NCBI GenBank assembly: GCA_020161575.1
Contig: JAIUNR010000011.1
Location: 1 to 55,637, forward strand
Direction: 5' to 3'
Source of the DNA: Pseudomonadota bacterium
GTDB lineage: Bacteria; Pseudomonadota; Alphaproteobacteria; Rhizobiales; Beijerinckiaceae
DNA length: 55,637 nucleotides
Shown here: in pieces, positions 1 to 27,829 of the stretch
How positions within the stretch are numbered: the stretch's first letter is position 1
How the letters are laid out: every line of letters starts with the position of its first letter
Translations under genes and position numbers: made by a program
The notes under the pieces: model-generated
Told to the model about the DNA's origin: nothing
The model's input: the letters and a program-made list of their open reading frames with translations, nothing else
Databases searched by the model: none

Positions 1-1
1 G

Positions 2-1634: not shown

Positions 1635-1659
1635 ACGATCGTTCTCCTATGATCGGCGC

Positions 1660-3033: not shown

Positions 3034-3882
3034 TCAGCGCAACTTCCCTCTAAAAATGCGTTCAAGCCAAAATCCAACAAGTAAATTCAACACAATTATA
3101 ACGAAAATATATCTCTTATCAAGGATTCCTTCTTTGTAAGTTTCATAATATCCTGATCTGACCCATTCAACACAATGTGCCAGCGGGTTAAAATACATAA
3201 AATTGACCATTTCTTTAGGCATGTGACTTGGTAGAAAGAGGGCTCCCGATGTTATATACAAGGCCACGCAATATAATACACAAAACTGAACCCACCCATG
3301 CACCATAGATGCTATTATAGCATTGGGAATGCAAAAGCTGATTGTGAAAGCAACAGTAATTAATATTCCAGTTATAGTCTCAAATGGCGCTTTTGGAATA
3401 GCAGAGAAACCAAGTATATAAAGACCAAAAAATAAAATGATGATAATTATAAATGAATTAATCATCTCCAGAAGGGAGCGCCCGATTACTAAGTCCATAG
3501 GGCGGACAAGCGGAAACATCAAGAGGGCGCGATTATCGATAATAGACATGACGATTGATCGAACAGGGTACAGATAAATCATGAATGGTAGTATTCCAGA
3601 TGCAAAAAAAACCATTCTATCTGTTCCGAGCAGTGCTCCTCTTCCAAGGAATGCATAAAAAGCTGAGAGGTAGATAAGGTGACCTAAGGGAACAAAAATA
3701 ACCTTGAGGTAAGAGAATTTATTTCCAAGCATCCTTCCATGAATGTCTCTGATAATAATAGCACCAATAACATCACAGTGAGTTTTGAACGCTCTCTGGA
3801 ATGCATAATATTTCTGATTCATGGTTGGAGAAGGCTCGCCATGGCGATTCAATAGGGGAGGGCGAGTACGCAAAAATTTCAT
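3034..3882 (-). CDS. kpsM: Capsule export ABC transporter permease, KpsM-like (ABC-2 family)
   Basis: Inner-membrane subunit of the capsule exporter, 282 residues with about six hydrophobic segments (for example LIYLSAFYAFLG, SFIIIIILFFGLYILGF, VFIIVLNLLVGFWL). The N-terminal FQRAFKTHCDVIGAIIIRDIHGR and the central FNPLAHCVEWVRSGYYE are ABC-2/KpsM hallmarks. The ATG overlaps the previous gene's TAA as TAATG, so translation is probably coupled. A second possible start is the internal MNQKYYAF, which would give a more usual length (about 262 residues). This gene is strikingly A+T-rich compared with the window, suggesting acquisition by transfer. It should pair with the ATPase at 4977-5684. Confidence 0.9.
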   Translation of the reverse strand: MKFLRTRPPLLNRHGEPSPTMNQKYYAFQRAFKTHCDVIGAIIIRDIHGRMLGNKFSYLKVIFVPLGHLIYLSAFYAFLGRGALLGTDRMVFFASGILPFMIYLYPVRSIVMSIIDNRALLMFPLVRPMDLVIGRSLLEMINSFIIIIILFFGLYILGFSAIPKAPFETITGILITVAFTISFCIPNAIIASMVHGWVQFCVLYCVALYITSGALFLPSHMPKEMVNFMYFNPLAHCVEWVRSGYYETYKEGILDKRYIFVIIVLNLLVGFWLERIFRGKLR

Positions 3883-4973: not shown

Positions 4974-4976
4974 AGC

Positions 4977-5684
4977 TTAGCGGTTGATCTCACGATAGAA
5001 TTCGATTGCCTCACTAACATCTTCGAATAAATTTAGTCTCCCATTCTCCAGTACAACACATTTATCGCAGTACTCTTTAATTGTTAGCATGTCGTGAGAA
5101 ATCATGATGATATCCGTTTCGGCGCGGCGACGATCAAATTCTCGCCGGCATCGTTCTTGGAATCTCGCGTCGCCGACGGCAATAACCTCATCTATTAGAA
5201 AGCAATCAAAATTAATTGCTATAGATAAGCCAAATGCTAATCGTTGCAGCATTCCTGAGGAGTAAGTCTTAACTTGTGCGTCGATATATCCTCCAATTTC
5301 AGAAAAGCTCCTTACAAAATCTAGCACTTCTCTGCGGTCCATCCCGTAGATCCGGGCGACGAAAGATACGTTTTCTCGACCGCTCATCTCAGGGTGCAGG
5401 CTACCGGTAAATCCAAGTGGCCACGAAATTCGGCAGTGGCGCCGAATTGCCCCTGCATTTGGCATCTCTGTCCCTGCGACCATCCGCATGAGCGTCGATT
5501 TTCCTGCTCCATTAACGCCTAATATGCCATAGTTCATTCCGCGCTCGAACTGGAATGTCACATGATCCAGGATCAGTTTAGTCGCATGCGACGACTGGTA
5601 GAATTTGAGAACATCGCGAAATTCCACAATCGCGGGAACTGAAGCGCTGATGTTTGGGAATTCGGTCATATTTTCGCGCGTCAT
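4977..5684 (-). CDS. kpsT: Capsule export ABC transporter ATP-binding protein, KpsT-like
   Basis: ATPase subunit driving capsule export through KpsM, 235 residues. Walker A is GVNGAGKS (56-63), the ABC signature is YSSGMLQRL (141-149), Walker B is FLIDEVIAVGD (162-172), and the switch histidine is in MISHDM. The short length and the SWPLGFTGSLHPEMSGREN segment are typical of the KpsT/Wzt polysaccharide exporter group. It lacks the C-terminal carbohydrate-binding domain of O-antigen Wzt. It is the first gene of the operon. No clear ribosome binding site precedes the ATG at 5684; a second ATG (MTEFPN, 5669) is possible. Confidence 0.9.
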   Translation of the reverse strand: MTRENMTEFPNISASVPAIVEFRDVLKFYQSSHATKLILDHVTFQFERGMNYGILGVNGAGKSTLMRMVAGTEMPNAGAIRRHCRISWPLGFTGSLHPEMSGRENVSFVARIYGMDRREVLDFVRSFSEIGGYIDAQVKTYSSGMLQRLAFGLSIAINFDCFLIDEVIAVGDARFQERCRREFDRRRAETDIIMISHDMLTIKEYCDKCVVLENGRLNLFEDVSEAIEFYREINR

Positions 5685-5934: not shown

Positions 5935-5964
5935 GGACTGGCCCCTTATGGCTCAGGCTCCAGC

Positions 5965-10137: not shown

Positions 10138-10377
10138 TTAACGCTGCGGAAACTGTTCTCGGAGCTGCCCCAGTGCGCGCTCTGCTTCTGCGCGATATGA
10201 CGATAGAGGATGCCGTGCGATGAAGAGTTCCAGTGCTTCTGCCGTGCCCTTCGAGAGAGCGGCGGTCAATTCCTCATGTTCGGCGATGGCAGGATCGCGG
10301 GCAAATTGCGCGCCGGCGTGGCCGGAGGACTGAACCTCGATGATCGCGGGGGGAGGTACAGGCACACCGTCTGGCAT
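10138..10377 (-). CDS. Small protein of unknown function downstream of the oxoamine synthase
   Basis: A 79-residue soluble protein in the same orientation as the PKS operon, starting 40 bases after the alpha-oxoamine synthase stop codon. The ATG at 10377 is chosen because AAGGA lies 7 bases upstream; the frame is open further upstream but only as a shadow of the synthase gene. The sequence has a proline-rich start (PDGVPVPPPA) and a helical C-terminus (TAEALELFIARHPLSSYRAE and AERALGQL) resembling half of a TPR-like pair. No catalytic motif is visible. It may be an accessory or scaffold protein for the PKS pathway, or have nothing to do with it. Confidence 0.6.
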   Translation of the reverse strand: MPDGVPVPPPAIIEVQSSGHAGAQFARDPAIAEHEELTAALSKGTAEALELFIARHPLSSYRAEAERALGQLREQFPQR

Positions 10378-10417
10378 CGAACCATCCTTGATTCGTATGA
10401 AAACCGAGAGGTATTTA

Positions 10418-11761
10418 TCAGGAGTTGGACTTCTTGAGAATGCTCTGGACCGATACATCCGAGAGTTCGGCAAGGATGGTTGCCGCTGCGTCAACGACAT
10501 CGTCGATCTGCTCGGGCGTATGCGTCGCGCTGAGGAAGAAGCGCAGCCGGGCGGATTTCTCAGGTACGCCGGGCGGCAGGATCGGAAACGCATTGAACCC
10601 GGCCGCCAGGAGACGCTCGGCAAGGACCAGGGTGCGCACGGTCTCCCCGACAATGACCGGGATGATCCCGTAGCCCCAGGCTTCGCCGGTATCGAGGCCC
10701 TTGGCCTTGGCGCGCTTGAGGAAACGCTGGGAATTGGCGGCGAGACGCGCGACGCGGTCCGGCTCGGCATTCATCAGTTCCAGCGCCTTGGCCGAGGCCG
10801 CGGCGACGCTGGCCGGCATCCCGACGCTGTAGACGAAGCCCGGCGCGTGGTGCTTGAGCAGATCCACCGCCACGGCATTGCCCGCGACATAACCACCGCA
10901 ACCGACGAGGCTTTTCGACAAGGTGCCGAACCAGAGATCGACCCCGGCCGGATCGACATTCTGGTGTTCGAAGAGCCCCTTGCCTGTCTTGCCGAGAACG
11001 CCGAGGCCATGGGCATCGTCGATCATCAGCCAGCAGCCATGCTTCTTCTTGAGTTCGACGAGGCGGGCGAGGTCCGGCCCGTCGCCATCCATCGAGAAGA
11101 GCCCTTCGGTAACGATCATGGCGCGGCCGAAACGGCCACGCTCGGCCGTGAGGAGCGCCTCGAGCGCGTCGAGATCGTTATGAGGGAAATTGCGCCGCGC
11201 CGCGCCCGAGAGCTGGGCGCCGACCATGATGCAATTATGGATCAACGCATCATGGACGATGAGGTCCTTCGGGCCGAGAAAGGTCGCGATGGTCGAGACG
11301 CCGGCGGCATGGCCGGAATTGAAGGCGATGCAATCCTCGGTGGCGTAATTGCGGGCCAGCAACGCCTCGAGGTCGCGATGCGGCTGACGTTCCCCGGCGC
11401 TGATCCGGCTGGCAGAGACCGAGCTGCCATAGGTCGCCAGCGCCGCTTCCCCCGCGGCGCGGATTTCCGGGTGCCCGTTCAGGCCGAGATAATCGTAGGA
11501 GGCGAAATTGACCACCTCGCGATTGCCGATCATCGCAGTATCGCCGGAGCGCCCGCCATGAAGGCGATAATAGGGAACATCCAGCGCGCCGAACTTGGCG
11601 AATTCGCGCTGGAACTTGATCTGCTGGTATTGCGGCAGCGTTTCGAACCCGACATCGTAAGCCGGCACGGGCGGCGCGGCGGCGGCCTGGCGCGCGGGCG
11701 CCGCCGGCACCTTGCGCATCATGCCCAGAAGCCCGTCGAGATCGCTGCCCTTGCCGCTCAT
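10418..11761 (-). CDS. Alpha-oxoamine synthase (PLP-dependent) paired with a polyketide synthase
   Basis: PLP enzyme of the family of 8-amino-7-oxononanoate synthase, serine palmitoyltransferase and glycine C-acetyltransferase, which joins an amino acid to an acyl thioester with loss of CO2. It has 447 residues from the ATG at 11761. Motifs: NFASYDYLGLNGHP (85-98), FNSGHAAGVS (147-156), VTEGLFSMDGD (217-227), IDDAHGLGVLG (247-257) and the Schiff-base lysine in FGTLSKSLVG (Lys283). A 60-residue N-terminal extension (FETLPQYQQIKFQREFAKFG) is longer than in biotin or heme enzymes. The ATG overlaps the PKS TGA (ATGA), implying translational coupling. Because the PKS has no thioesterase, this enzyme probably releases the chain from the ACP as an alpha-aminoketone. 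The amino acid used cannot be read from the sequence. Confidence 0.88.
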   Translation of the reverse strand: MSGKGSDLDGLLGMMRKVPAAPARQAAAAPPVPAYDVGFETLPQYQQIKFQREFAKFGALDVPYYRLHGGRSGDTAMIGNREVVNFASYDYLGLNGHPEIRAAGEAALATYGSSVSASRISAGERQPHRDLEALLARNYATEDCIAFNSGHAAGVSTIATFLGPKDLIVHDALIHNCIMVGAQLSGAARRNFPHNDLDALEALLTAERGRFGRAMIVTEGLFSMDGDGPDLARLVELKKKHGCWLMIDDAHGLGVLGKTGKGLFEHQNVDPAGVDLWFGTLSKSLVGCGGYVAGNAVAVDLLKHHAPGFVYSVGMPASVAAASAKALELMNAEPDRVARLAANSQRFLKRAKAKGLDTGEAWGYGIIPVIVGETVRTLVLAERLLAAGFNAFPILPPGVPEKSARLRFFLSATHTPEQIDDVVDAAATILAELSDVSVQSILKKSNS

Positions 11762-14700
11762 GTCTTGCGCCCCGCCTTTCCGATGGTCAGCCCCACCCCG
11801 CTGGCTCGCGCTTCTTCCACAACACCCTCTTCGCTGCCATGCATGACAGCCATAGATTTGGCCAGGTCGATATAGTCGTCGCCTTCGGCATCCTGCCCGC
11901 TGATCTTGGTATAGATGCCGGCGGCCAGATCGCCCAGCCGACGATCCGCCGAGCCGACCATCGGCATATCGGTGCCGCAAAGGCGTTCGATCGCAAGCTG
12001 GAGCTCAAGTGCCATCAGCGAATCGAGCCCCAGCTCGCCGAGCGGGCGGCTGATATCGATCTGCTCCTCGGGCATGCGCAGGATGTAGGAAATCTCGCGG
12101 CGCAGCGCGCGCGTGATGATTTCCGTCGCCTCCACCATGGTTTTCCCCTCGATGGCGGAAACGAGGTCTCCGCCATCCTCGCCCTTATCTTCGGCTCGGG
12201 CGAGGCCCAGGCCCGCGAAAGTGGGGCTGTTGATGAGGCGCAGTTTTTCAGCCGCGCCGCTGGGCGCAATATTGGTGTAGAACTGAGTGGCCTCCACCTT
12301 ATGGCCGAGAACCAGCATCCGGCCGAGATGGGCGAGGGATTCCGAGGAGGAAATGCCCACCACGCCCGTTGTGCGCCGCAGGCGCCGGCCGAGCTGTTTG
12401 TCGCGCGCGATGATGCCGACATCGGAAATCGCGCCCCAGCCGATCGCGAGGGCGTTGCGCCCCTGCTTGCGAAGCTGGCGGGCAAAGCCCTCTAGCCAGG
12501 CATTGGCCGCGACATAGGCGCCTTGGCCCGGGCTTCCGATGACGGTGGTCGCCGAGGAGTAGAACACCATGAAATCGAGGGTGTGCTGCTCCGTCGCAGC
12601 GGCGAGATTGAGTGCGCCGCGAAGCTTGGTTGAAAGCACCGCGCGCAGGCGATCGGGCACGAGGCCCGAGATGATCCCGTCCTCAAGCAGGACGGCTGCG
12701 TGGACGATGCCGCGAATCGGGCCGCGCGTCTCGGCGAGGCGCTTGATCAGAGCCCGCGTGGCTTTCGCATCGTTGACATCCAAAGCCTCGACCAGAACCT
12801 CGGCGCCATACGCGCGCATTGCCGCGATGGCGGCTTCGCCCCCGTCTTCGACCCGCCCCCGCCGCGAGGCGAGAACCAGGGTGGTCGCGCCGCGCCGCGC
12901 CAACCAGAGCGCTGTCTGGAGCCCGAGGCCGCTCGTGCCGCCCACGACGAGATAGACGCCCGCGCGCAGTTCCGGCTTCAGGGCGGCGATATCCGGCATC
13001 GCCGCCTTGGGCGGGTGGATGACGATCTTGCCGACATGCTCGGAGGCCTGCATGGCATGGAAAGCCGCACCGATCTGGTGCGCGGCGTAAACGCGGTGGG
13101 GCAGGGCGGTGAAGTGTCCGGCCATCAGCCGCTGCGAAACCTCCCGCATGATCTGCTCGACCGCCGGCTTGTCATGCGCCAGCAATTCGTCGAGATCGAC
13201 GCCGAAATACGAGATATTCCGCACGAAGGGCCGCAGGCCGAGATGGGTATTGTCGAGATAATCGCGCTTGCCCAGCTCGATGAAGCGCCCGAACGGTTTG
13301 ACGAGTTTGAAGCTCGCCGCCATCCCAGCCCCCGCGAGCGAATTCAACACCACATCGACCCCGCCATGCGCCTCGCGGATGGCCTCGGCGAAACGCTCGT
13401 TGCGTGAATCGTAACAATGATCCGCGCCCGCCGCGCGCGCGATCGCCCGCCTTTCCTCCGAACTCGCGGTGGCGAGAACGGTTGCGCCCATGCTCTTGGC
13501 GATCTGGATCGCCGCAAGCCCGACGCCGCCGGCGCCGCCATGGATCAGAACTGTCTCGCCGGGGCGGATCTGCCCGCGATGCACCAGCGCGAACCAGGCG
13601 GTCGCGAAGGCGACCGGCACCGTCGCCGCCGCTTCGAGTGACAATCCTTCCGGCACTTTGAAGAAATGCCAGTCCGGCGCGACGAGGTGGGAGGCGAAGG
13701 TATTGGCGGCAAAGCCCATCACCCTGTCGCCGATCGCGAAGGCATGTTGTCCCGGCCCGAGCCGTGTGACAACACCCGCGCATTCGAAGCCGAGCGCGGC
13801 GGCGGTGAGGCCCGCCCCGAGCAGGTCGTCGTCGAGAATGCCGAGCCCGACGAGAATATCGCGGAAATTGAGGCCGGTGGCGATGACCTCGATCTCGACC
13901 TCGCCTTCGCCGGGGGCGAGGCGATCGGTTTTCATCCATTGAAAACTGTCGAGACGACCGGGCTGTTCGAAGCGCAGCAGGGCGCGCTCCTCGCCGGCCA
14001 GTTCTTCCATGAAATGCAAGCCCCGGCGCATGCGCAGCGCAGCGAGGCCCGCCTCGTCCGCGACCAGTTCCAGCTCGCCGCCGGAGAGGGTCAAAGCTTC
14101 GCCGATCCGGGCGGTGCAGGTCGCGATATCCAGCGTCGTGGCGCAATCGAGCAGACGGAAATCGACGATCGGGAATTCGTTGATCGCGACGCGCAGGAAC
14201 CCCCAGAGGCCGCTCGTCGTCGGTTCAGGCGCAGGCGAGGCCTCGGTGGCGCCGCGCGTCAGAATCGTCACCCGCGGGGCGGTTTCGCTGCTTTCCAAGG
14301 CTTCGGCGATGGCTTTCACCGCCTCGATGCTGCGCGCCAACGTCTCCACCGCATCGTCCTGCGCCTTGTCGGCGAGATAGAGCAGATGAGCCGGCATCTG
14401 CCCGGCCTTGACGATCCGCTCGAGCTGGCTGGCGAGATCGGCTTCAGCATCGATGGTGATATCCGCGCGCGGCGCAAGATTCTCGAAGAGCGGGGAGCTG
14501 CGATGACCGATCACCGCGAAGCTCTGCGTCTGCATGTCCGCTTTCGTCACATGGGCCGGCGCGCGACCGGCCGCGACCAGGCCGAGGCCGTCGGGGAGGG
14601 GGCGCGCCACAATCTCCCTTGCGCCGAAACCTTCGAGCAGACGCTGCGCTGCGCCGGTCGCGGGGCGATGGTCAAGCGCGGCTTCGGGGCGCCCGGAATT

Positions 14701-17700
14701 TGCGAGCCAGCCGTTCCAGAAGCCGCAGACGAAATCGAGCGTCGCATCCGCGCCGGGCTGGGCGACCAACAACAGCCCTTCGGGCCGCAGAAGAGACGCG
14801 ATATCCGGCAATCCCTCGGCGCTCAGCGATGCGCTCGCCACCGCGACGAGGATGTCATAGGGCACGTCCGGCCGACGGCCAGCCTCGCTGGCGAGGTCAA
14901 GGAACTCAATGGCGGAATCCACGCGCTCCATCGCGCGGGTCTGGTCGATGGCCTTGCGGTTGGGCGCGGCGAGGGTCAACTCGATCAGGCCGCGATCCGC
15001 GAGGGGCTGGAGCGTGGTGAGCAGGCCATGCGCGCCGAGTTCGGCGGCAAGCACACGCAGGCGCTTGCTGCCTCCGCGCGCGGCATCGGCAATCGTCTCC
15101 CGCAGGATCTGAAGCGCCGGTGTGGCAAAACTGCCTTCGATCTCGAACTGCTCGCGCAGCCAAACCGGCGGCGGAACGAGCCGACCCTTTGCCACGCAAT
15201 CCTCGATATGGGCGAGGGCATGCCCGGCAAGGCGCAATTCCAGTGTCGCCTCGGGAAATTTTGTGAACAGCGTCTGAAGCAGGCCTTCCGGCGTGGGGAG
15301 CGCATGCGTCGCTGCGAGGCGTCCCTCTTCCACGAGACCGAATGCCTCGACAACTCCGAGGGCGGCCTCGACGATTGGGCGTGCGGTTTCAGCGAGACCA
15401 GCGGATTCAACGGCGGCGGTATCGACACTGAGAGTCGGGAAATGAGTCAGCAGAAGCCTGTGCGCCAATGAGATCGCGAAGGCGCGCATCACCAGCCAGG
15501 CCGGTTCCGGCCCTGCCTCTTCGGCTGGCCCGGATGCCGCGAGTTTGGCTAGCGCCGCATCCAGCCGGGCCTGCGCATCGCGCTGGATCGGCAGTGCAAG
15601 CCGCTCGGTGCGGAAAGTGCGATCAGCAACAGTCGCCTTCGAGAAATAGAGCGCGCGCAGCACAGCAGCCTCAACCGAGGCGACAACCTTGTCCTCGGCA
15701 TCCAGCAGGATGATGGCGATGGTCTTGAAGCGATCGGTCTCTTGCAGCAGCAGAGTCATGGCGCGGCGGATCGGCACGCCATGCCGCCAGACGCGGATCT
15801 TGCGGAAGCGGACGGGAAGATGCGCCTTTTTCTCGCCTTCCTTCTGAGGGCGCGAGATGAAAAGCCCGTGGAAGGAAGCATCGAGGGAGGCGGGGTGCAG
15901 GACGTGCAGATCCTCGAAAGCGCCCAACCCGTCGGTTGGGAGGCCCTCGCCGGGGGGGCGCAGGGTTGAGAACGCCGTGACACGATCGCGTTCGCTCGCG
16001 CTCACAAGGCGGAAATGCGGGCCATATTCCAGACCGGCGCGGGTCGCCTCGTCATAGATTTCCTGTTCGGTGTCCCGCACCTTCTCTGCCTCAATCGGAG
16101 GGGCGAACGGCAGGGTCTCTGATTGATTGGTTACGCTAATCGTGCCGCGCGCGTGAAGGGTCCATTCCTGAGCGGAGAAGCGCTTGCGGCTCCAGATCTC
16201 TACCGTGGCTGTCTGCGCGGCGAAGCGGGTCGATACCTCACGGGTTTCGCCTTCGGCGATGGCAAGCGCCTTGAGAACATCGAATTCATCAAGTTCAAGC
16301 GGCACTTGACCGAAGAGATCACGTCCGGCGGCAAGCGCCATCTCGATCAAGCCGGCGGCGGGGACGATCACACCGCCATCGACGCGATGATCGTCGAGAT
16401 ACGGAACAATCACGGGATCGATCAGGGCACGCCATTCGGGGGAGCCATCGGCAAGGCGAGCACCCAGCAGGGGATGACGCGCCTCGGACAGCACCGCCTT
16501 GCCAAAGGCGTTGAAGGCTTCCGCCGTGCCGGGCAGATTATAATCCGCACGGGCGAAGGGGTAATGAGGCAGCGAGAGGCGGAGGGTGGGACGGGGGCCG
16601 AACACGGCCTCGGGCGCGAAGGCGGCGCCCTGCACCATCAGCCGGCCGATCACGAGATCGACAGCGGCGGGCGTATCCTTCTGCGAGAGCGTTGAAATCG
16701 CCTCGCCCTCGATCCCGAGCGCGCGCAGGTTCTCGCTCACCGCGCCTGTAAGGATTCCACGCGGCGCGATCTCCACGATAATCCGGCGTCCGCCGCCGGC
16801 GGCAGTCGCGACCGCATCCGCGAAATGCACCTCGCCGCGAATGTTGCGCCACCAATAGGTCGCGTCCAGCTTCTCGCCGGAGAGTTCGCCGCCCGTTACG
16901 GTCGAAATGAAGCGGGCCGTGCCCTTTCTCGGGCGGATCCCCGCGAGGTCGGCGATCATCCCGCGCTCGATCGGGTCCAGGGCGGAGGAATGGAAGGGAT
17001 AATCGATATCGAGCGGTACCGTCGCGATCCGCGCGAGACGGCAATGCTTGGCGAAGCTTTTGAGCAGCTCTGCCGGGCCGGAAAGTGAGGTTGAAGTCGG
17101 ACTGTTGGAGGCCGCGATCTCGATGCCTGGCGTGCTAAAGCCCTGAAGCAGGGTTTCCACCCGCTCCCTGTCGGTCGCGACGACCATCATCCGCCCGAGG
17201 CCGCGCACTTTTTCCTGATGCGCGGAGCGTAGGAAGATCAGCCGCGTGGCATCGGCGCGCGAGAGAATTCCCGCCACTTCCGCCGCGGCCACTTCGCCCA
17301 CCGAGTGACCAAGCACGCTTTCCGGCGAGAACCCGTAACGACGCATTACGCCGGCAAGGGCGGATTGAACGGCATAGATCAGCGGCTGTGCAACCGAGGT
17401 CCGCTCCAGTTCGAGCGGATCAATACCGTCGGTGAGTCTTTCGGCTATCGACCAGCCCGCGAGGGGCTTGAAGATCGCGTCGATCTCCGCGATCTCAGCG
17501 CGAAATTCCGGGCTGCCGGCATAGGCCTGCTTGCCCATTTCGGGAAACTGCGCCCCGTTGCCCGAAAAGACGAAAACCAGCGGGGCAGGGTTGCCCGCTT
17601 CACCCGCGACGCCAAGGCCGCCGATTTCCTCACCCTTCGCGTAGGCGCGGAGCGCAGCGGTCGTTTCCGCCGGCGCACGGGCAGGAATTGCGAGGCGGAG

Positions 17701-19164
17701 CTTCTGGGTCTCGCGGAAATGTCCGATCTGACGGGCGACGGTGGCGGGCGCGATACCCGCGTCGATCGTTTCCGCGATGCTTCCGGCCAGTTGTGCGAGG
17801 GATTGGCCCGTCGAGGCGGAAAGCAGCAGCAGCGGCGCGTCCGCGGCAGGCTCTGCCCTGGATTCCTTGCGCTCCACGGCCCGGATCAGGGCATGGGCAT
17901 TGGTGCCGCCGAAACCGTAATTGCAGATGGCGGCGTAAGTCCCGTCGCGCGCAAGGTCGAGGGAACGCGCAGCGGCGTTCGGTTCGAGCTTCAGGCCCTC
18001 AAAATCAATGGATTCGTTGCGCGTTTCAAGAAACAACGAACGCGGCAGAAGACGGTTCTCGAGCGCAAGCGCAGCCTTGAGGAGCCCCGCAAGCCCGGAA
18101 GCGGCTTCAAGATGGCCGATATTTGACTTCACCGAGCCGATTGGGAGCGTCTTGCTGCGCTTCTGCCCGATCGCCTGTCCGATCGCGGTTGCCTCGATCG
18201 GATCGCCGACCTTGGTGCCGGTGCCATGCGCCTCGACGAAGGCGATCTCGTCCGGGGCCACGGCCACGCGGTCATAGACCCGGTCAAGCAGGCGGCGCTG
18301 GCCTTCCAGCGAGGGAAGCGAAATGCCGCTCGTCCGCCCGTCGGAATTGACGGCGACATCCACGATCAGCGCCCGCTGGCGATCGCCGGCGGCTTCCGCC
18401 ACATCCTTGCGTCGCAGGACGAGAACCACCGCGCCCTCGGAGCGCACATAACCGTCGGCGTCGCCGGAGAAGGGCCGGGAGAGCCCGGTCGGCGATAGCA
18501 TGCGCGCCTGCGAGAAGCCGATGAACGGCGCCGGCGAGAGCAGCAGGTTGACGCCGCCGACAACCGCCGTGTCGATCTCGCCGGAGCGCAGGGCTTCCAC
18601 CGCCCGGTCCAGTGCGACGAAAGACGAGGAGCAGGCGGAATCGACCGTAAAACTCGGTCCCTTGAAATTGTAGATATAGGAAATCCGGTTGGAGAGGATC
18701 GACAGTGAATTGCCGGTCATGAAATGGCTTTCCATGACCGCGGGGTCGTGCAGCGCGCCGCTCTGATAATCCACCAGCGACGCGCCGACATAGACGCCGA
18801 CATCTTCGCCCGCGAGACTGGAAGGGGCGATGCCCGCATCCTCGAAAGCCTCCCAGACCACCTCGAGCAGCACGCGCTGCTGCGGATCCATCTGCTGCGC
18901 TTCTCGCGGAGAAATACCGAAAGGCGTGGGATCGAAGCCCAAAGGCTCGTCGAGATAGCCGCCGGCAAATGTATAGGCGAAGCCCGGTGTCGGGTCGCCG
19001 GGGCGCAGGAAACGCTCGACGCTCCAGCGGCCCACAGGCGCACGAGCGACAGAATTACCCTCATTGACGAGAAGCGCCCAGAAATCGGCAAGGTTCGCGG
19101 CGCCGGGCAGGCGGCACGCCGCGCCGATCACTGCGATTTCCGGCATTTTGACGTTCGACTTCAC
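11758..19164 (-). CDS. Type I polyketide synthase, single module: KS-AT-DH-(MT-like)-ER-KR-ACP
   Basis: A 2468-residue multidomain enzyme that builds a reduced acyl chain. KS about 8-430 (Cys178 in DSACSSS; His313 in EAHGTGT; His351 in NIGHLEAASG). AT about 530-830 (Ser621 in GHSVGE; YPFHS motif suggests malonyl-CoA). DH about 897-1180 (His926 in HRVDGGVIVP; Asp1095 in LDASFH). About 1200-1560 is methyltransferase-like without a usable SAM motif. ER about 1737-2055 (NADPH loop HGGAGGVG). KR about 2069-2260 (GGTSGLGLQ; Tyr2217 in GQGAYVAAN). ACP with Ser2382 in LGLDSLMAL. All reductive domains look intact, so a saturated chain is expected, probably by iteration. No thioesterase is present. The GTG at 19164 is preferred because GAGGTAGG lies just upstream; an ATG (MPEIAVIG) follows. 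The operon continues into the oxoamine synthase. Confidence 0.93.
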   Translation of the reverse strand: MKSNVKMPEIAVIGAACRLPGAANLADFWALLVNEGNSVARAPVGRWSVERFLRPGDPTPGFAYTFAGGYLDEPLGFDPTPFGISPREAQQMDPQQRVLLEVVWEAFEDAGIAPSSLAGEDVGVYVGASLVDYQSGALHDPAVMESHFMTGNSLSILSNRISYIYNFKGPSFTVDSACSSSFVALDRAVEALRSGEIDTAVVGGVNLLLSPAPFIGFSQARMLSPTGLSRPFSGDADGYVRSEGAVVLVLRRKDVAEAAGDRQRALIVDVAVNSDGRTSGISLPSLEGQRRLLDRVYDRVAVAPDEIAFVEAHGTGTKVGDPIEATAIGQAIGQKRSKTLPIGSVKSNIGHLEAASGLAGLLKAALALENRLLPRSLFLETRNESIDFEGLKLEPNAAARSLDLARDGTYAAICNYGFGGTNAHALIRAVERKESRAEPAADAPLLLLSASTGQSLAQLAGSIAETIDAGIAPATVARQIGHFRETQKLRLAIPARAPAETTAALRAYAKGEEIGGLGVAGEAGNPAPLVFVFSGNGAQFPEMGKQAYAGSPEFRAEIAEIDAIFKPLAGWSIAERLTDGIDPLELERTSVAQPLIYAVQSALAGVMRRYGFSPESVLGHSVGEVAAAEVAGILSRADATRLIFLRSAHQEKVRGLGRMMVVATDRERVETLLQGFSTPGIEIAASNSPTSTSLSGPAELLKSFAKHCRLARIATVPLDIDYPFHSSALDPIERGMIADLAGIRPRKGTARFISTVTGGELSGEKLDATYWWRNIRGEVHFADAVATAAGGGRRIIVEIAPRGILTGAVSENLRALGIEGEAISTLSQKDTPAAVDLVIGRLMVQGAAFAPEAVFGPRPTLRLSLPHYPFARADYNLPGTAEAFNAFGKAVLSEARHPLLGARLADGSPEWRALIDPVIVPYLDDHRVDGGVIVPAAGLIEMALAAGRDLFGQVPLELDEFDVLKALAIAEGETREVSTRFAAQTATVEIWSRKRFSAQEWTLHARGTISVTNQSETLPFAPPIEAEKVRDTEQEIYDEATRAGLEYGPHFRLVSASERDRVTAFSTLRPPGEGLPTDGLGAFEDLHVLHPASLDASFHGLFISRPQKEGEKKAHLPVRFRKIRVWRHGVPIRRAMTLLLQETDRFKTIAIILLDAEDKVVASVEAAVLRALYFSKATVADRTFRTERLALPIQRDAQARLDAALAKLAASGPAEEAGPEPAWLVMRAFAISLAHRLLLTHFPTLSVDTAAVESAGLAETARPIVEAALGVVEAFGLVEEGRLAATHALPTPEGLLQTLFTKFPEATLELRLAGHALAHIEDCVAKGRLVPPPVWLREQFEIEGSFATPALQILRETIADAARGGSKRLRVLAAELGAHGLLTTLQPLADRGLIELTLAAPNRKAIDQTRAMERVDSAIEFLDLASEAGRRPDVPYDILVAVASASLSAEGLPDIASLLRPEGLLLVAQPGADATLDFVCGFWNGWLANSGRPEAALDHRPATGAAQRLLEGFGAREIVARPLPDGLGLVAAGRAPAHVTKADMQTQSFAVIGHRSSPLFENLAPRADITIDAEADLASQLERIVKAGQMPAHLLYLADKAQDDAVETLARSIEAVKAIAEALESSETAPRVTILTRGATEASPAPEPTTSGLWGFLRVAINEFPIVDFRLLDCATTLDIATCTARIGEALTLSGGELELVADEAGLAALRMRRGLHFMEELAGEERALLRFEQPGRLDSFQWMKTDRLAPGEGEVEIEVIATGLNFRDILVGLGILDDDLLGAGLTAAALGFECAGVVTRLGPGQHAFAIGDRVMGFAANTFASHLVAPDWHFFKVPEGLSLEAAATVPVAFATAWFALVHRGQIRPGETVLIHGGAGGVGLAAIQIAKSMGATVLATASSEERRAIARAAGADHCYDSRNERFAEAIREAHGGVDVVLNSLAGAGMAASFKLVKPFGRFIELGKRDYLDNTHLGLRPFVRNISYFGVDLDELLAHDKPAVEQIMREVSQRLMAGHFTALPHRVYAAHQIGAAFHAMQASEHVGKIVIHPPKAAMPDIAALKPELRAGVYLVVGGTSGLGLQTALWLARRGATTLVLASRRGRVEDGGEAAIAAMRAYGAEVLVEALDVNDAKATRALIKRLAETRGPIRGIVHAAVLLEDGIISGLVPDRLRAVLSTKLRGALNLAAATEQHTLDFMVFYSSATTVIGSPGQGAYVAANAWLEGFARQLRKQGRNALAIGWGAISDVGIIARDKQLGRRLRRTTGVVGISSSESLAHLGRMLVLGHKVEATQFYTNIAPSGAAEKLRLINSPTFAGLGLARAEDKGEDGGDLVSAIEGKTMVEATEIITRALRREISYILRMPEEQIDISRPLGELGLDSLMALELQLAIERLCGTDMPMVGSADRRLGDLAAGIYTKISGQDAEGDDYIDLAKSMAVMHGSEEGVVEEARASGVGLTIGKAGRKT

Positions 19165-20374: not shown

Positions 20375-21862
20375 TCAGCCGCGCTGGAAATCGTCCTGGA
20401 TGCGGATGATGTCGTCTTCGCCGAAATAGGTTCCGGTCTGGACCTCGACAATCTCGATATTCTCCGCGCCGGGATTTTCCAACCTATGGACGGCGCCGAG
20501 CGGGATATAAGTCGACTGGTTCGCGTTCAGGTCGGTGATCGTGTCATCGATCGTCACGCGCGCGGTACCTTTCACCACGACCCAATGCTCGGCGCGATAG
20601 GCATGCTTTTGCAACGACAGCCGCTTGCCCGGATAGACGACGATGCGCTTGGCCTGAAAATGCGGCATCAGCTCCAGCGTTTCATACCATCCCCATGGGC
20701 GATGGACGCGCAAATGATTGACCGCTTCCTGGCGGCCCGCTTTACGCAATGTCTCAACGATGCCCTTCACCTCGCCGGCGCGCGCCTTGTCCGCAACGAG
20801 GATTGCGTCGCGGTTGGCGACAACGACGAGATCCTCAACGCCAAGCATTGCGACCAATTGGCGCTCGCTCGATACGTAATTGCTGCGGCTGTCAACGAAG
20901 ATCGCTTCGCCCTCGGCGCGGTTGTTCTCGGAATCGCGCTCCGAGATCGCCCATAGGGCTTCCCAGCCGCCGATATCCGACCAGCCGAAATTCCCGGTGA
21001 CGACAGCGGCGTGGCGGGTTTTCTCCATCACGGCGAAATCGAAAGAGATCTTGCGCGCCTGTGTGAAGCGGTCCTCATCGAGAACCGGGGCGCCGAGATC
21101 AGGGGTTGCGCTGTCGATCGCGGCTTTTACGGCCTGAACCGATTCGGCGTCCGCTGCTTCATATTCGGCGATCACTGTGGCGGGGCGGAAAAGGAAATTT
21201 CCGGAATTCCAAAGATATCCGGCCGCGATATAGCTTTGGGCGCGGGCCTCGTCGGGTTTCTCGACGAAACGTTCGACGCGCCTCGCTGCTTCATCCAAGG
21301 GGGCGCCGACCGCGATATAGCCGTATCCTGTTGCCGGATGGCTCGGGACGATGCCGAAGGTGACGATTTCACCTGCCAGCGCGGCTTGCGCACCGCTTTT
21401 CGCCGCGTGACGAAAGCCCGCCGGATCGAGCACGACATGGTCCGCCGCGAGCACCAGCGCGAGCGCATCGGGATCGCTTCTGGCAATGGACAAGGCCGCA
21501 GCAAGGATGGCTGGGCCGGAATCGCGCGCGACGGGTTCGAGAAGGAATTCGCCCTCGGCGCCGATTTCGCTCAATTGCCGCTCCGCCATGAAGCGCAACG
21601 CCTTGTTGGTGACAATGAGCGGCTTTCCGAAAGCCGGATCGCCCGCAAAGCGCAGGATCGTTTCCTGGAATGTCGAGCGTGATCCGAGCAGCGGCGCGAA
21701 TTGCTTGGGATAGGCCTCACGCGAGGCCGGCCAGAGCCGAGTTCCTGATCCTCCGCACATGATGACGGGGCGAATGAGCGGCGGCTTGAAAGACATCTGG
21801 ATTGATCGCCCTGACCTGTGGGTTTCTGCAATATCCATGGGGCTCGGGAGTTGAGATTTCAT
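20375..21862 (-). CDS. manC: Mannose-1-phosphate guanylyltransferase / mannose-6-phosphate isomerase
   Basis: Bifunctional enzyme making GDP-mannose (GMP/PMI type II, as in ManC, CpsB and AlgA), 495 residues from the ATG at 21862. The N-terminal nucleotidyltransferase has the PVIMCGGSGTRLWPASRE pyrophosphorylase signature, YPKQFAPLLG and RFVEKPD. The C-terminal cupin has HRPWGWYETLE, LQKHAYRAEHWVVVKG and IPLGAVHRLENPG (isomerase metal ligands). The start at 21862 has GAGG 5 bases upstream; the next ATG (21796, MSFKPP) gives 473 residues, closer to the usual family length, but lacks a good ribosome binding site. Its product would feed Gmd and Fcl at 26762-28787 for GDP-fucose, probably for the capsule. 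Confidence 0.92.
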   Translation of the reverse strand: MKSQLPSPMDIAETHRSGRSIQMSFKPPLIRPVIMCGGSGTRLWPASREAYPKQFAPLLGSRSTFQETILRFAGDPAFGKPLIVTNKALRFMAERQLSEIGAEGEFLLEPVARDSGPAILAAALSIARSDPDALALVLAADHVVLDPAGFRHAAKSGAQAALAGEIVTFGIVPSHPATGYGYIAVGAPLDEAARRVERFVEKPDEARAQSYIAAGYLWNSGNFLFRPATVIAEYEAADAESVQAVKAAIDSATPDLGAPVLDEDRFTQARKISFDFAVMEKTRHAAVVTGNFGWSDIGGWEALWAISERDSENNRAEGEAIFVDSRSNYVSSERQLVAMLGVEDLVVVANRDAILVADKARAGEVKGIVETLRKAGRQEAVNHLRVHRPWGWYETLELMPHFQAKRIVVYPGKRLSLQKHAYRAEHWVVVKGTARVTIDDTITDLNANQSTYIPLGAVHRLENPGAENIEIVEVQTGTYFGEDDIIRIQDDFQRG

Positions 21863-22035
21863 GACTGCCTCGCCGTTTCTCCCGCATCTGTTACGGCGGC
21901 GGGGCAGAAACATGGCAAAATCCATGCTCACCCAAAGAGAAATCCCCGCCTCATCCACAGGGGTTAGTTTTTTGCCATATGGCAGGCGGAGCGCCTTTCA
22001 GTCCTGCCTACCTTGCGCAGCGGGCGGAGACAGTT

Positions 22036-23012: not shown

Positions 23013-24440
23013 ATGGCCTTACGCCTCTACACCCCCGCCCCGGTCATCGAGGAGCAAGGCGAGGATTTTTTCGTCGCGCCTCATCCCCGGCCCTTGAGCG
23101 CTCCCCCCGGTATCCTCGGTATGATCCTCGGCTCCCGCCATTCGCTGATCGGGGGCTGGATGGATGAGAGCTACGAATCCGGTCTCACGACCTTCAAGGT
23201 GCTCACGCGCGAGGTTGTGCTGGTCAACACGCCCGAGCACATCAAATACGTGATGGTGACGCGTCACCAGAATTTCGAACGAAAGAGCCCGCAGATGCGC
23301 CGCGCCCTCGAGGTGCTGCTGGGCGATGGGCTCTTCATCTCGGAAGGCGAGACCTGGAAAAGCCGCCGGCCGCTGGTCGCGGATATCGTGCACAAGAACC
23401 GGGTCCCCGCTTTCGGGCGGACCATGAAGGATGTCACGGTCGCGTTCGCGCAAGGCTGGGAAAACTACCGCGCGGACGAGGAATTCGAGCTGACCTCCGC
23501 CATGGCGGAACTGACGGCGGAAATCATCTCCCGGACGATTTTCGGCCATGATCTCGGCACCGAGGCCGCCCGGCAGGTCATCGACGGATTTGCAACCTAT
23601 CAGAAATCGGTCGACAATTTTAATCTCGGCTATTGGCTCGGCTCGGACGAAGGCTGGCCGATCCTCCACGGGCCTGTGAAGAAGCGCGCCGTCGCGATGG
23701 TCCATGGCGTGGTCGAGGGGGTCATCAACGCCCATCTGGCGGGCGCGGGCGAAGAGGGGTCGATGATCGATCTTCTCGTCAAGCGCCGCCAGAAAAGCCC
23801 CGAACTCGGGCTCGATGTCACGGCCCTGCGCAACGAGGCCGCGACGCTTTTCATGGCGGGGCACGAAACCACGGCCACCACCCTGACCTGGGCCTTCTAT
23901 CTCCTCGCGCGGGCGCCGTGGATCGAAAAGGCGATGCTCGAGGAGATCGCACAAATCTGTGGCGACCGCGACCCAACGATCGACGATGTCGAACAGCTCG
24001 AATTATGCCGCGCCGTGATCCAGGAGACGCTGCGGCTCTATCCGCCGGTGCCGCTGTTGCCCCGGCAGGCCCGCGAGGCGGACAAGGTTGGCGACTTCGA
24101 GGTGAAGAAGGGGGGCATGGTCATGATCGCGCCCTGGCTCATCCAGCGCGCCCGCGACCTTTGGGATGACCCTAATCATTTCAAGCCGCAGCGTTTCATG
24201 AACGGCGCGCGCATCAATACCTTCGCCTATATTCCGTTCGCGGTGGGCCCGCGTGTCTGTGCCGGGCTCAATTTCGGCCTTTCCGAAGCGATCCTGTGCC
24301 TTGCCATTCTGGTGCGCCGCTTCAAGGTGAAGGTTCGCCCCGGTTACCGTGCCGAACCAGTCTGCCGCCTTACCCTGCGCGCGCTGGATGGCGTGCCTGT
24401 CACGGTCTCTCGGCGTGCCGAAAGTGCCGCCACGCCATGA
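23013..24440 (+). CDS. Cytochrome P450
   Basis: Heme monooxygenase of 475 residues. The oxygen-activation helix is AGHETTATT, the K-helix ExxR is ETLR in VIQETLRLYPPVPLLPRQAR, the meander PQRF is present, and the heme loop is FAVGPRVCAGLNFG with ligand Cys416. There is no N-terminal membrane anchor, so it should be soluble and need separate redox partners, none of which are in the window. The layout resembles fatty-acid or long-chain hydroxylases, but substrate class cannot be decided by eye. The ATG at 23013 is chosen over an in-frame upstream ATG (22947) because the upstream 22 residues look non-conserved; neither start has a strong ribosome binding site. Its stop overlaps the next start (ATGA). 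Confidence 0.92.
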   Translation: MALRLYTPAPVIEEQGEDFFVAPHPRPLSAPPGILGMILGSRHSLIGGWMDESYESGLTTFKVLTREVVLVNTPEHIKYVMVTRHQNFERKSPQMRRALEVLLGDGLFISEGETWKSRRPLVADIVHKNRVPAFGRTMKDVTVAFAQGWENYRADEEFELTSAMAELTAEIISRTIFGHDLGTEAARQVIDGFATYQKSVDNFNLGYWLGSDEGWPILHGPVKKRAVAMVHGVVEGVINAHLAGAGEEGSMIDLLVKRRQKSPELGLDVTALRNEAATLFMAGHETTATTLTWAFYLLARAPWIEKAMLEEIAQICGDRDPTIDDVEQLELCRAVIQETLRLYPPVPLLPRQAREADKVGDFEVKKGGMVMIAPWLIQRARDLWDDPNHFKPQRFMNGARINTFAYIPFAVGPRVCAGLNFGLSEAILCLAILVRRFKVKVRPGYRAEPVCRLTLRALDGVPVTVSRRAESAATP

Positions 24441-25324
24441 GCGGGACGCCTGTGGATTGGCACGAGCGCGTGCAAGGCGTGTTGTTTCGGCTGGTGGGAC
24501 GCCTCCCGATCGATTGGGCGTCCCAGCTCGGGCAAATCCTGACCAGACGCAACGTGTGCAGGAATCGGCCCGAGATCATCGAAAACGCCCGCCAGAATCT
24601 CCGCTTCCACTTCCCGGAGGCGAGTGCCGAGGCGATCGAGGCCAAGGTCGAGGAGTTCCTCGATGGAGTCGGCCGGGTCATGGGGGAGTTCACCGTGATG
24701 AACCGCCTGATGCCGGAAGGACGGCTGGAGGCGACCGGGCTCGAAGCGTTCAAGGCCGTTGCTCAGACAAGGCCGATCCTTGCGCTCGGCCTTCATACCG
24801 GCAACTGGGAAACTTTCGGCCCGATGTTCCAGCATGCCGGTATCCCGTTGACGTCTTTTTACGCGCCGCCCGAGAATGCTTTCGAGCGGCGGATCGCCGA
24901 GGAGACGCGGGCGCGTTTCGGGGTGGCGTTACTCAGCCCCGATGCCGCCGGCACGCGTCAGGCGATGCGCCTGCTCAAGCGTAACCAGGTCGTCATGATC
25001 TTTCCCGATGAGGCAAGGGGCGGCGTTCAGATGGGTCCGCTTTTCGGGCGCCCGCCGCATCCCTATGGTAACCTCGCCATCGCTGTGCGACTCGCGCGCC
25101 ATACCGGCGCGGCTTTCGTGATTTGTCATAGTCGCCGTCTGAAAGGATGTCGGTTCACGCTCGATTTTGGCACGCCGTTTGACTTGCCAGAACAGGGGCA
25201 ATCCGATGTGCTGGCGGATGTCGCGTTTCTCAACAGCAAAATCGAACCGATTGTGCGGGATAATCTGCCGCGCTGGTATTTTCTGGATGACAGGCTCGAC
25301 CCAGTCTCTTCCCGTGGCGGTTGA
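24437..25324 (+). CDS. LpxL/HtrB-like acyltransferase (LPLAT superfamily)
   Basis: A 295-residue acyltransferase of the lipid A late acyltransferase type. The catalytic HX4E motif is HTGNWE (His120, Glu125). It is followed by FYAPPENAFERRI, then VVMIFPDEARGGVQMGPLFGR (family pattern D...GGV..PFFG) and LARHTGAAFVICHSRRL. The N-terminal helix expected in LpxL is weak (RVQGVLFRLVGRLPIDWASQ). The ATG at 24437 overlaps the P450 stop as ATGA, so the two are translationally coupled, which is unusual for a housekeeping lipid A enzyme. Possible roles are lipid A acylation or acylation of a lipid modified by the P450; the sequence cannot decide. Confidence 0.8.
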   Translation: MSGTPVDWHERVQGVLFRLVGRLPIDWASQLGQILTRRNVCRNRPEIIENARQNLRFHFPEASAEAIEAKVEEFLDGVGRVMGEFTVMNRLMPEGRLEATGLEAFKAVAQTRPILALGLHTGNWETFGPMFQHAGIPLTSFYAPPENAFERRIAEETRARFGVALLSPDAAGTRQAMRLLKRNQVVMIFPDEARGGVQMGPLFGRPPHPYGNLAIAVRLARHTGAAFVICHSRRLKGCRFTLDFGTPFDLPEQGQSDVLADVAFLNSKIEPIVRDNLPRWYFLDDRLDPVSSRGG

Positions 25325-25465
25325 AGTCTGATCGGTTATCGCGCGGTTAACGCTGTTGCGAAATTGCAGCAGAAACGGAGCGAAAAGAAAGGGATCATTT
25401 CTTTTATCATGCGGTACGTGTAGGAAGTCCTGCAAGCTTCCGGGCGAGTCTTTGGATTGGTTGGA
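25325..25465. promoter_or_regulatory. Intergenic region with a short inverted repeat upstream of the export lipoprotein gene
   Basis: About 140 bases between the acyltransferase stop and the KpsD-like start. Around 25383-25407 lies AAAAGAAAGGGATCATTTCTTTT, whose arms AAAGAAA and TTTCTTT can pair around a short loop. It may be a weak terminator or an operator for the next gene. The evidence is a visual repeat only. Confidence 0.35.
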
Positions 25466-26641: not shown

Positions 26642-26761
26642 TCCTTTCCAGCGCCAGCGGGGCGGCAATGTCGCCCCGCCTGTGCGAAGCCTGCTGGCTT
26701 TTCGCCGCATTCCTCTTTATGTCCCGGTTGCGGACCAAGAATGCCCGCCGGAAAGAACGAT

Positions 26762-27829
26762 ATGACGAAAACTGCGCTGATCACCGGCATTACCGGACAG
26801 GACGGGGCGTATCTCGCCGAATTGCTGCTGGCGAAGGGCTACGTGGTTCATGGGGTCAAGCGGCGCTCCTCCTCGTTCAATACCCAGCGCATCGACCATC
26901 TCTATCAGGATCCGCACGAGCGCGATGTGCGCCTGACGCTGCATTACGGCGACATGACCGATGCCACCAATCTCATCCGCATCGTGCAGGAGACGCGGCC
27001 GGACGAAATCTACAATCTCGCGGCGCAAAGCCATGTGCAGGTGAGTTTCGAAACCGCGGAATACACCGCCAATGCCGATGCGATCGGCACGTTGCGCCTG
27101 CTGGAAGCGATCCGCATCCTGAAGCTCGAGGGCAGGACACGTTTTTATCAAGCCTCCACCTCCGAGCTTTACGGCAAGGTGCAGGAAGTTCCGCAGAGCG
27201 AGAAAACACCCTTCTATCCACGCTCTCCTTACGCTGCCGCCAAGCTCTACGCCTACTGGATCACGGTGAATTACCGCGAGGCTTATGGACTGCACGCCTC
27301 GAACGGCATTCTCTTCAATCATGAGAGCCCGTTGCGCGGGGAGACCTTCGTCACCCGCAAGATCACGAGGGCGGTCGCGGCGATCCATCACGGCCTGCAG
27401 GACAGGTTGTGGCTCGGCAATCTCGACGCCAAGCGCGACTGGGGCCACGCGAAGGATTATGTCGAGGGCATGTGGCGTATTCTCCAGCAGCCGGAGGGTG
27501 ATGATTACGTGCTCGCGACCGGCGAGACGCATTCCGTGCGCGCATTCGTGGAGCGTGCCTTCGCGGTTGTCGGCATGTCTATCGGCTGGAAGGGTGAAGG
27601 CGCCGAGGAGCGCGGCTTCGATCTGGAAACCGGCCGCGAGGTGGTGGCCGTCGATCCGCGTTACTTCCGGCCCACGGAGGTGGATCTCCTGATCGGTGAT
27701 CCACGCAAGGCGCGTGAGAAGCTGGGCTGGGTGCATTCGACGCCGTTTGAAACGCTCGTGCGCGAAATGGTCGAGGCGGATCTCGTCGCGGTGAAATCCG
27801 AGCGGGAACGCCTCGAGCGGCATGGGTAA
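26762..27829 (+). CDS. gmd: GDP-mannose 4,6-dehydratase
   Basis: NADP-dependent short-chain dehydrogenase-type enzyme that turns GDP-mannose into GDP-4-keto-6-deoxymannose, 355 residues. The Rossmann motif is [13 protein letters not shown] (9-21), then [17 protein letters not shown] and [13 protein letters not shown]. The catalytic Thr/Ser, Tyr and Lys lie in [12 protein letters not shown] and [12 protein letters not shown]. The C-terminal [14 protein letters not shown] is the usual substrate-binding region. ATG 26762 has GGAAAG just upstream. Its last 8 bases overlap the start of fcl, so the two are made together. Substrate comes from ManC (20375-21862). Confidence 0.96.

What the first reader, a model, noticed from the sequence alone, without database searches (positions are those of the whole stretch)
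10138..19164. Thioesterase-less reducing PKS coupled to an alpha-oxoamine synthase
A single-module PKS with intact KS, AT, DH, ER, KR and ACP motifs has no release domain, and its stop codon overlaps the start of an alpha-oxoamine synthase (ATGA). Fungal fumonisin-type pathways release a reduced polyketide with such an enzyme to give a sphingoid-like aminoketone. A compact bacterial version with a third small gene would be a candidate pathway for long-chain aminoketone or 1-deoxysphingoid-like lipids. The product is inference; the domain layout is seen.
Basis: partly seen in the sequence, partly recalled or inferred. Interest (0 to 1): 0.8.

Follow-up and report, generated by a model that had tools for sequence, protein, structure and literature searches.

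The report
Bacterial sphingolipid-base genes beside capsule genes
Two neighbouring genes probably build a long-chain sphingolipid base, a known kind of bacterial gene pair, and their surroundings and relatives suggest that the lipid anchors a sugar capsule and is modified by an enzyme pair not linked to it before.

Summary
In detail: a 2468-aa KS-AT-DH-ER-KR-ACP polyketide synthase without release domain overlaps (ATGA) a 447-aa alpha-oxoamine synthase (AOS). The pair is a known kind: RkpA/RkpG of Sinorhizobium, WcbR/WcbT of capsule loci, and SgaAB of Pseudomonas fluorescens, shown in 2025 to make C24-C28 sphinganines from L-serine. So "sphingoid-like" is supported, "1-deoxy" less likely, and the small third gene is confined to the genus and near kin. 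Two leads go further. (1) The window also holds ABC-type capsule genes, including the genome's only KpsS-like protein. In 249 genomes of the order, Capsule_synth occurs in 51 of 57 with this AOS and 33 of 192 without. The S. meliloti gene order reads as polyketide, serine condensation, ketone reduction, a sulfatase-fold transferase, Kdo priming: a sphinganine-based capsule anchor (inference). (2) A coupled P450/LpxL-like pair in the window belongs to subfamilies found only in genomes with this AOS (25 of 25; 17 of 17), suggesting a tailoring branch. Against: a sister species has the PKS-AOS pair without Capsule_synth; the window's genome lacks an LTA-synthase-like enzyme; WcbQ is reported to act on the polysaccharide chain.

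The parts
11758..19164 (-). single-module iterative-type reducing PKS (KS-AT-DH-ER-KR-ACP), no release domain; RkpA/WcbR/SgaA type
10418..11761 (-). PLP-dependent alpha-oxoamine synthase (RkpG/WcbT/SgaB type), ATGA overlap with the PKS; H175, D248, H251, K283, R405, R407 invariant in a 19-row alignment that includes it
10138..10377 (-). 79-aa ORF, seen only in the genus and one near MAG; probably not part of the pathway
23013..24440 (+). cytochrome P450 of a subfamily found only in genomes with this AOS in the samples searched
24437..25324 (+). LpxL-like acyltransferase (HX4E motif, name recalled), 4-nt overlap with the P450; subfamily found only in genomes with this AOS in the sample searched
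36097..37410 (+). KpsS-like Capsule_synth protein (PF05159), the only one in the genome; predicted Kdo transferase
   Evidence: NCBIfam KpsS 208.8 bits, below its cut-off of 600
25457..26641 (+). outer-membrane polysaccharide export protein (Poly_export/SLBB; KpsD-type role inferred)
4977..5684 (-). export ABC ATPase of the KpsT/Wzt/TagH kind
3034..3882 (-). KpsM-like export ABC permease
   Evidence: (91.6 bits, cut-off 300)
1660..2958 (-). KpsE-like protein
   Evidence: phmmer with a Caballeronia seed; no Pfam hit
396..1634 (-). second KpsE-like protein
   Evidence: no Pfam hit
20375..21958 (-). ManC-type mannose-1-phosphate guanylyltransferase / isomerase (sugar supply)
26741..28787 (+). GDP-mannose 4,6-dehydratase and an Epimerase-family protein, probably GDP-fucose synthase (sugar supply)
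   Evidence: the name GDP-fucose synthase is inferred from position

Best explanation
The PKS builds a long reduced acyl chain iteratively on its own ACP. Lacking a thioesterase, it hands the thioester to the AOS, which condenses it with L-serine to a long-chain 3-keto-sphinganine; a ketoreductase (candidate at G000:C4, 40% identical to the S. meliloti RkpH-position SDR) makes sphinganine. The base is then turned into a polar lipid that serves as membrane anchor or carrier for a polysaccharide primed by a KpsS-type Kdo transferase and exported by the KpsM/T/E and Poly_export proteins of the same window. In relatives that carry an LTA-synthase-like enzyme (RkpI, WcbQ) the head group would be phosphoglycerol, giving a look-alike of lyso-phosphatidylglycerol, the kind of acceptor KpsS uses in E. 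coli. In the window's lineage the P450 and the LpxL-like acyltransferase would act in sequence (hydroxylate, then acylate the new hydroxyl or the amine). Shown: domains, gene order, co-occurrence, and (in print) the chemistry of the P. fluorescens homologue. Inferred: product, amino acid and chain length here, the anchor role, the role of the LTA-like enzyme, the substrate of the P450/LpxL pair.
For: Layout and motifs. AOS family shared with S. meliloti, Pseudomonas, Burkholderiales and Halomonadaceae; SgaAB chemistry (PMC12134224, sections 8 and 7). Capsule link: PF05159 in 51 of 57 genomes with this AOS against 33 of 192 without; by genus 20 of 23 against 22 of 88 (hand count, test); nearest PF05159 within 30 kb in 28 of 57 (a lower bound, since the match list was cut and only part of it was entered). 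rkp-1 gene order on S. meliloti L062, the ORF in the RkpI position being PF00884 (the record gives no rkp names, they are assigned by order). SDR and LTA-like genes next to PKS-AOS in Halomonadaceae. rkp-1 assigned to a KPS 'specific lipid carrier' (PMC4881576 passages) or 'lipid carrier or anchor' (PMC3557214 passages); wcbPQRT called lipid-carrier genes (PMC11766843 passages); KpsS transfers Kdo to (lyso-)PG (PMC7694667 passages). P450/LpxL: 25 of 25 and 17 of 17 carrier genomes have the AOS (base rate 57 of 249); P450 and LpxL-like are neighbours in 17 of 17 genomes with both; in the phylum sample 4 of 4 P450 genomes have the AOS (base rate 23 of 398; two of the four also in the order sample), and a third genome of the genus, G515, lacks both.
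Against: The sister genome G082 has two PKS-AOS copies and no PF05159, so there the lipid cannot be only a KpsS acceptor. 28 of 58 regions have no KpsS/C-like gene in the fetched stretch, and 44 of 80 named loci show none of KpsS/C, KpsM, KpsE or export genes (flanks of 10 kb, many contigs shorter). The window's genome has no LTA-like enzyme by PF00884: its one match looks like a Cys-type sulfatase. It has no second PF05159, hence no KpsC. LTA-like was scored in only 3 of 58 order regions. PMC11766843 cites WcbQ, the LTA-synthase-like protein of the wcb operon, as able to move glycerol phosphate onto the polysaccharide chain, a different role from the one proposed. SgaAB lipids are reported as free lipids with a host effect, and the main text of that paper has no word beginning with capsul. 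8 of 25 P450 genomes have no LpxL-like match at E <= 1e-25. Genomes of an order are not independent samples. The P450 cut (1e-100) was set after seeing a gap in the scores; the weaker P450s show no such restriction (8 of 28 genomes with the AOS).
Confidence: 0.5

Rival explanations
1. The pair makes free sphinganine-type membrane or secreted lipids (as reported for SgaAB); capsule genes are near only because surface-glycolipid genes cluster together.
For: SgaAB yields free sphinganines and PG-sphingolipids; sister genome G082 has the pair and no PF05159; about half of the regions show no KpsS/C-like gene nearby (28 of 58).
Against: Genome-level association with PF05159 (51 of 57 against 33 of 192); rkp-1 mutants are described as KPS-deficient (PMC4881576 passages); on the Pseudomonas TMW plasmid the pair lies directly beside genes annotated as capsular polysaccharide biosynthesis, KpsF, KdsB and KdsA.
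Confidence: 0.32
2. The AOS takes alanine or glycine and makes 1-deoxysphingoid-like lipids.
For: AOS paralogues differ in amino acid, and phmmer ranks KBL (glycine; 204 bits) slightly above SPT structures (196 bits).
Against: The characterised homologue prefers L-serine almost exclusively; the window AOS is 48% identical to the Pseudomonas plasmid homologue and groups with PKS-linked AOS. The SgaB sequence itself was not available here.
Confidence: 0.1
3. The pair makes a dedicated antibiotic- or toxin-like secondary metabolite of the fumonisin kind.
For: Same release chemistry as fungal Fum1/Fum8 (recalled); a P450 lies close by.
Against: Wide conservation across Proteobacteria, often with surface-polysaccharide genes; the P450 is partnered with an LpxL-type acyltransferase.
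Confidence: 0.05

Closest known systems
PfSgaAB of Pseudomonas fluorescens MYb115 (Nat Commun 2025, PMC12134224)
   Same: Monomodular iterative PKS plus AOS; product a long-chain 3-ketosphinganine, then sphinganine.
   Different: There the SDR SgaC is in the cluster and PG-sphingolipids are seen; no capsule role is mentioned in the main text. In the window no SDR or LTA-like gene was scored.
rkp-1 region of Sinorhizobium (RkpU, A, G, H, I, J)
   Same: Export protein, PKS, AOS and KpsS-like protein in one area; rkp-1 is assigned to a KPS lipid carrier (PMC4881576, PMC3557214 passages).
   Different: SDR and PF00884 genes follow the AOS directly in S. meliloti; in the window's genome the nearest SDR homologue is on another contig and no RkpI-like gene was found.
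wcbPQRT lipid-carrier operon of Cobetia (described first in Burkholderia)
   Same: PKS and AOS within a KpsS/C-type capsule system (PMC11766843 passages; Halomonadaceae). That WcbR is the PKS and WcbT the AOS is my assignment from gene order and PMC3908369 passages.
   Different: An SDR and an LTA synthase (WcbQ) belong to the operon; neither is next to the window pair.
Fungal fumonisin FUM1/FUM8
   Same: AOS releases a reduced polyketide.
   Different: Different lineage and product class; recalled, not compared by sequence here.
Canonical bacterial serine palmitoyltransferase (Spt with AcpR and AasR)
   Same: Same fold family and probably the same reaction.
   Different: P0002 scores far below the curated SPT cut-offs (269 of 500, 267 of 640, 197 of 670 bits); the acyl donor is a PKS rather than AcpR (AcpR: PMC9386255, abstract and passages).

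Membership tests
PKS-AOS sphinganine synthase (SgaAB/RkpAG/WcbRT kind) | single-module KS-AT-DH-ER-KR-ACP PKS without TE | tested here: met
PKS-AOS sphinganine synthase (SgaAB/RkpAG/WcbRT kind) | adjacent AOS with PLP lysine and active-site residues | tested here: met
PKS-AOS sphinganine synthase (SgaAB/RkpAG/WcbRT kind) | AOS groups with the PKS-linked AOS of named relatives | tested here: met
   quick tree of 83 rows; only HemA served as outgroup, so separation from other AOS families rests on identity and NCBIfam scores
PKS-AOS sphinganine synthase (SgaAB/RkpAG/WcbRT kind) | L-serine as substrate, sphinganine product | not testable with these tools
   inferred from PfSgaB
rkp-1 / wcbPQRT capsule lipid-carrier operon | KpsS-like gene in the locus | tested here: met
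   36097-37410, about 25 kb from the AOS, the only PF05159 of the genome
rkp-1 / wcbPQRT capsule lipid-carrier operon | SDR (RkpH/WcbP) in the locus | tested here: not met
   none scored in the window at 100 bits; best homologue at G000:C4
rkp-1 / wcbPQRT capsule lipid-carrier operon | LTA-synthase-like (RkpI/WcbQ) gene in the locus | tested here: not met
   the genome's only PF00884 match is a sulfatase-like protein on another contig
canonical SPT | score above a curated SPT model cut-off | tested here: not met
fungal fumonisin-type cluster | FUM gene complement | not tested
   recalled only
Swf sponge-symbiont PKS | release by SwfB (reductase + sulphotransferase) | tested here: not met
   an AOS follows the PKS instead; SwfB features from PMC3908369 passages

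The most novel reading that the evidence does not exclude
ABC-exported capsules of many Proteobacteria are built not on phosphatidylglycerol but on a dedicated polyketide-derived sphingolipid, and in one branch a coupled P450/LpxL-like pair hydroxylates and acylates that base, giving a capsule anchored on a new ceramide- or acyloxy-type sphingolipid. This would identify the lipid carrier of rhizobial K-antigens, left without a structure in the papers seen here.
Probability: 0.33. Interest if true: 0.85.

Novelty: new variant of a known kind. Interest (0 to 1): 0.57.

Why it matters
It joins two literatures that did not meet in the searches run here: PKS-derived bacterial sphinganines (2025) and the lipid carrier of rhizobial K-antigens. 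If right, the rkp/wcb gene order becomes a readable pathway, KpsS has a second type of lipid acceptor, and sphingolipid production extends to thousands of capsule-bearing strains that need no canonical SPT. The P450/LpxL-like pair adds an untested tailoring branch that can be assayed.

Tried and rejected
Viral contigs with the AOS: 2 stretches matched a pattern, none encodes a relative. Rfam, RNA models and structure prediction were not used. A direct look at the MYb115 cluster was not possible: its genome was not found in the collections used; three primers printed in the paper were compared, on the given strand only, with L062-L066 and L159-L238 and gave nothing within 5 mismatches except one hit with 5 mismatches in L178. 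So the view that MYb115 has the gene order of the Pseudomonas TMW plasmid rests only on locus-tag spacing (RS19805, RS19800, RS19775) and is inference. The PKS search across the order failed and was not repeated; PKS adjacency was counted in fetched stretches instead. The 79-aa gene as a pathway member was rejected for its narrow spread. A second AOS group (about 45% identity, E about 1e-82 to 1e-103) and weaker hits near 1e-60 to 1e-70 were left out of the 57-genome class. The second AOS copy of G090 was not fetched. In the tree the 5 of 80 loci of 9,000 bases or fewer were dropped; it is a quick tree in which two long branches meet (L208, L222), so only its broad grouping is used. The order sample and the 80 named loci overlap in part (for example L159 = G082, L167 = G103), so their counts are not independent. 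Statements that something was not seen in print rest on the held open-access library only: 18 of 18 papers listed; 11 of 11; 19 of 19; 1 of 1; 0 found; 15 of 71 listed; 25 of 13,634 listed; 20 of 213 listed. Kiss 1997 is not held; Mueller 2009 and Willis 2013 were seen only as reference lines.
Full report
What is there. On the minus strand the window carries a 2468-aa polyketide synthase (11758-19164) followed, with a four-base ATGA overlap, by a 447-aa alpha-oxoamine synthase (10418-11761) and a 79-aa ORF (10138-10377). Pfam shows KS, AT, DH, ER, KR and ACP and no release domain, and the active-site motifs are intact. The closest solved PKS by sequence is mycocerosic acid synthase, as I recall also iterative and without thioesterase. 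The AOS matches KBL, SPT and BioF structures with similar scores (204, 196 and 180 bits) and falls below the curated cut-off of each of the 13 NCBIfam models it matches, the three SPT models included. Its PLP lysine and five further residues are invariant in an alignment of 19 rows (residue roles recalled).

It is a known kind. An AOS search of 249 genomes of the order gives 75 genomes at E <= 1e-60 and a tight class of 57 at E <= 1e-110. Of 30 fetched loci 29 have the PKS end next door, and in wider stretches 55 of 58 do (two of the other three end at contig edges). A plasmid search gave 21 records, of which 6 were opened: Sinorhizobium meliloti (rkp-1), a Pseudomonas plasmid, Caballeronia, Shinella, Paraburkholderia and Methylobacterium. 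A quick tree of 83 rows puts the window AOS among these. The chemistry is published for P. fluorescens MYb115 SgaAB: C24-C28 sphinganines, L-serine almost exclusively over alanine and glycine, and lipids 154 Da heavier read as phosphoglycerol sphingolipids (PMC12134224, sections 7 and 8). That paper reports 6,101 homologous clusters.

Capsule context. The same window holds two KpsE-like proteins, a KpsM-like permease, a KpsT/Wzt-type ATPase, a Poly_export protein, sugar-nucleotide genes and a KpsS-like protein that is the only Capsule_synth (PF05159) protein of the genome. Across the 249 genomes PF05159 is present in 51 of 57 genomes with this AOS and in 33 of 192 without (odds ratio 41); by genus 20 of 23 against 22 of 88 (test, counts by hand; one genus rests on a weak match). 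The nearest PF05159 lies within 30 kb in 28 of 57 genomes and within 10 kb in 24 (lower bounds). In stretches around the AOS, KpsS/C-like genes were scored in 30 of 58 regions, export proteins in 23 and RkpH-type reductases in 23, LTA-like in 3; in the 80 named loci with flanks of at most 10 kb the numbers are 19, 20, 35 and 21.

Reading the pathway. In S. meliloti the order is export protein, PKS, AOS, SDR, a 512-aa ORF, KpsS-like protein, which I read as RkpU, A, G, H, I, J. The ORF in the RkpI position is a PF00884 protein, as are the annotated LTA synthases or phosphatase-family proteins of the Pseudomonas, Caballeronia, Shinella and Paraburkholderia loci; these five served as search seeds, and the Methylobacterium plasmid locus was a sixth, found with them. 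LTA synthases, from general knowledge, move glycerol phosphate from phosphatidylglycerol. KpsS starts capsules on (lyso-)PG (PMC7694667 passages). The literature assigns rkp-1 to a lipid carrier (PMC4881576 and PMC3557214 passages) and wcbPQRT to a carrier 'probably fatty acids' (PMC11766843 passages); the last also cites WcbQ as moving glycerol phosphate onto the polysaccharide chain, which would be another job for the same enzyme. Put together, the gene order predicts a sphinganine-phosphoglycerol anchor. This combination is my inference. In the held library no paper holds both rkpA and sphingolipid, the main text of the SgaAB paper has no word beginning with capsul, a 2025 review of capsule attachment has none beginning with sphing or polyketide (PMC12220298), and the papers listed (in the last, 15 of 71) showed by title and abstract none that joins the two.

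A second lead. A cytochrome P450 (23013-24440) overlaps by ATGA an LpxL-like acyltransferase (24437-25324). In the 249 genomes the P450 subfamily (E <= 1e-100, 25 genomes) and the acyltransferase subfamily (E <= 1e-25, 17 genomes) occur only in genomes with this AOS. All 17 acyltransferase genomes also have the P450, as its neighbour; 8 of the 25 P450 genomes have no acyltransferase match at that cut. In 11 of the 17 the pair is on another contig than the AOS or at least 340 kb away from it, in 5 within 20 kb, in one at 65 kb. Weaker P450s show no such bond (8 of 28 genomes). In the phylum sample 4 of 4 P450 genomes at E <= 1e-75 have the AOS (base rate 23 of 398; two of the four are also in the order sample), and genome G515 of the window's genus lacks both. 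Rhizobium tropici CIAT 899 has the pair on a plasmid, while its rkp-1 is reported on the chromosome (PMC3557214 passages). Among the 12 pairs examined for overlap 8 show ATGA; one genome is there twice, so 7 of 11 distinct pairs, including a Halomonas; the Shinella pair also overlaps by four bases. Such unlinked co-occurrence argues for a shared pathway: hydroxylation followed by acylation of the sphingoid base is the simplest reading, not shown.

Limits. The sister genome G082 keeps two PKS-AOS copies without any PF05159, and the window's genome lacks an LTA-like enzyme and a KpsC, so the anchor model fits the window less well than it fits Sinorhizobium or Halomonas. Co-occurrence was tested on related genomes and, for the P450, with a cut set after seeing the scores. 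Product, amino acid and anchor role in this organism are inferred.

Noticed in passing
G000:C8:80001-99000 (L060): A second large assembly line in the genome: three neighbouring ORFs of about 3001, 1366 and 800 aa (the last is cut by the end of the fetched stretch), the first with a ketosynthase.
   Followed up: no
7207-10089 and 28891-32066: RTX/serralysin-like protein and a type I secretion ABC/HlyD pair lie on either side of the PKS-AOS area, and homologues are there in sister genome G082.
   Followed up: no
1-6000: The capsule export genes lie in a stretch of 46-50% G+C against 61-67% over most of the PKS area, suggesting later acquisition.
   Followed up: no
G082:C8 and G082:C9 (L040-L043): The sister genome has two PKS-AOS copies, 76% and 66% identical to the window AOS, and no PF05159.
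   Followed up: partly
order sample: A second AOS group at about 45% identity (E about 1e-82 to 1e-103), in several cases in the same genomes as the first; context not examined.
   Followed up: no
L064:13898-14824, L066:13887-14801, L226: In Burkholderiales loci an LpxC-like or annotated deacetylase gene sits between PKS and AOS.
   Followed up: no
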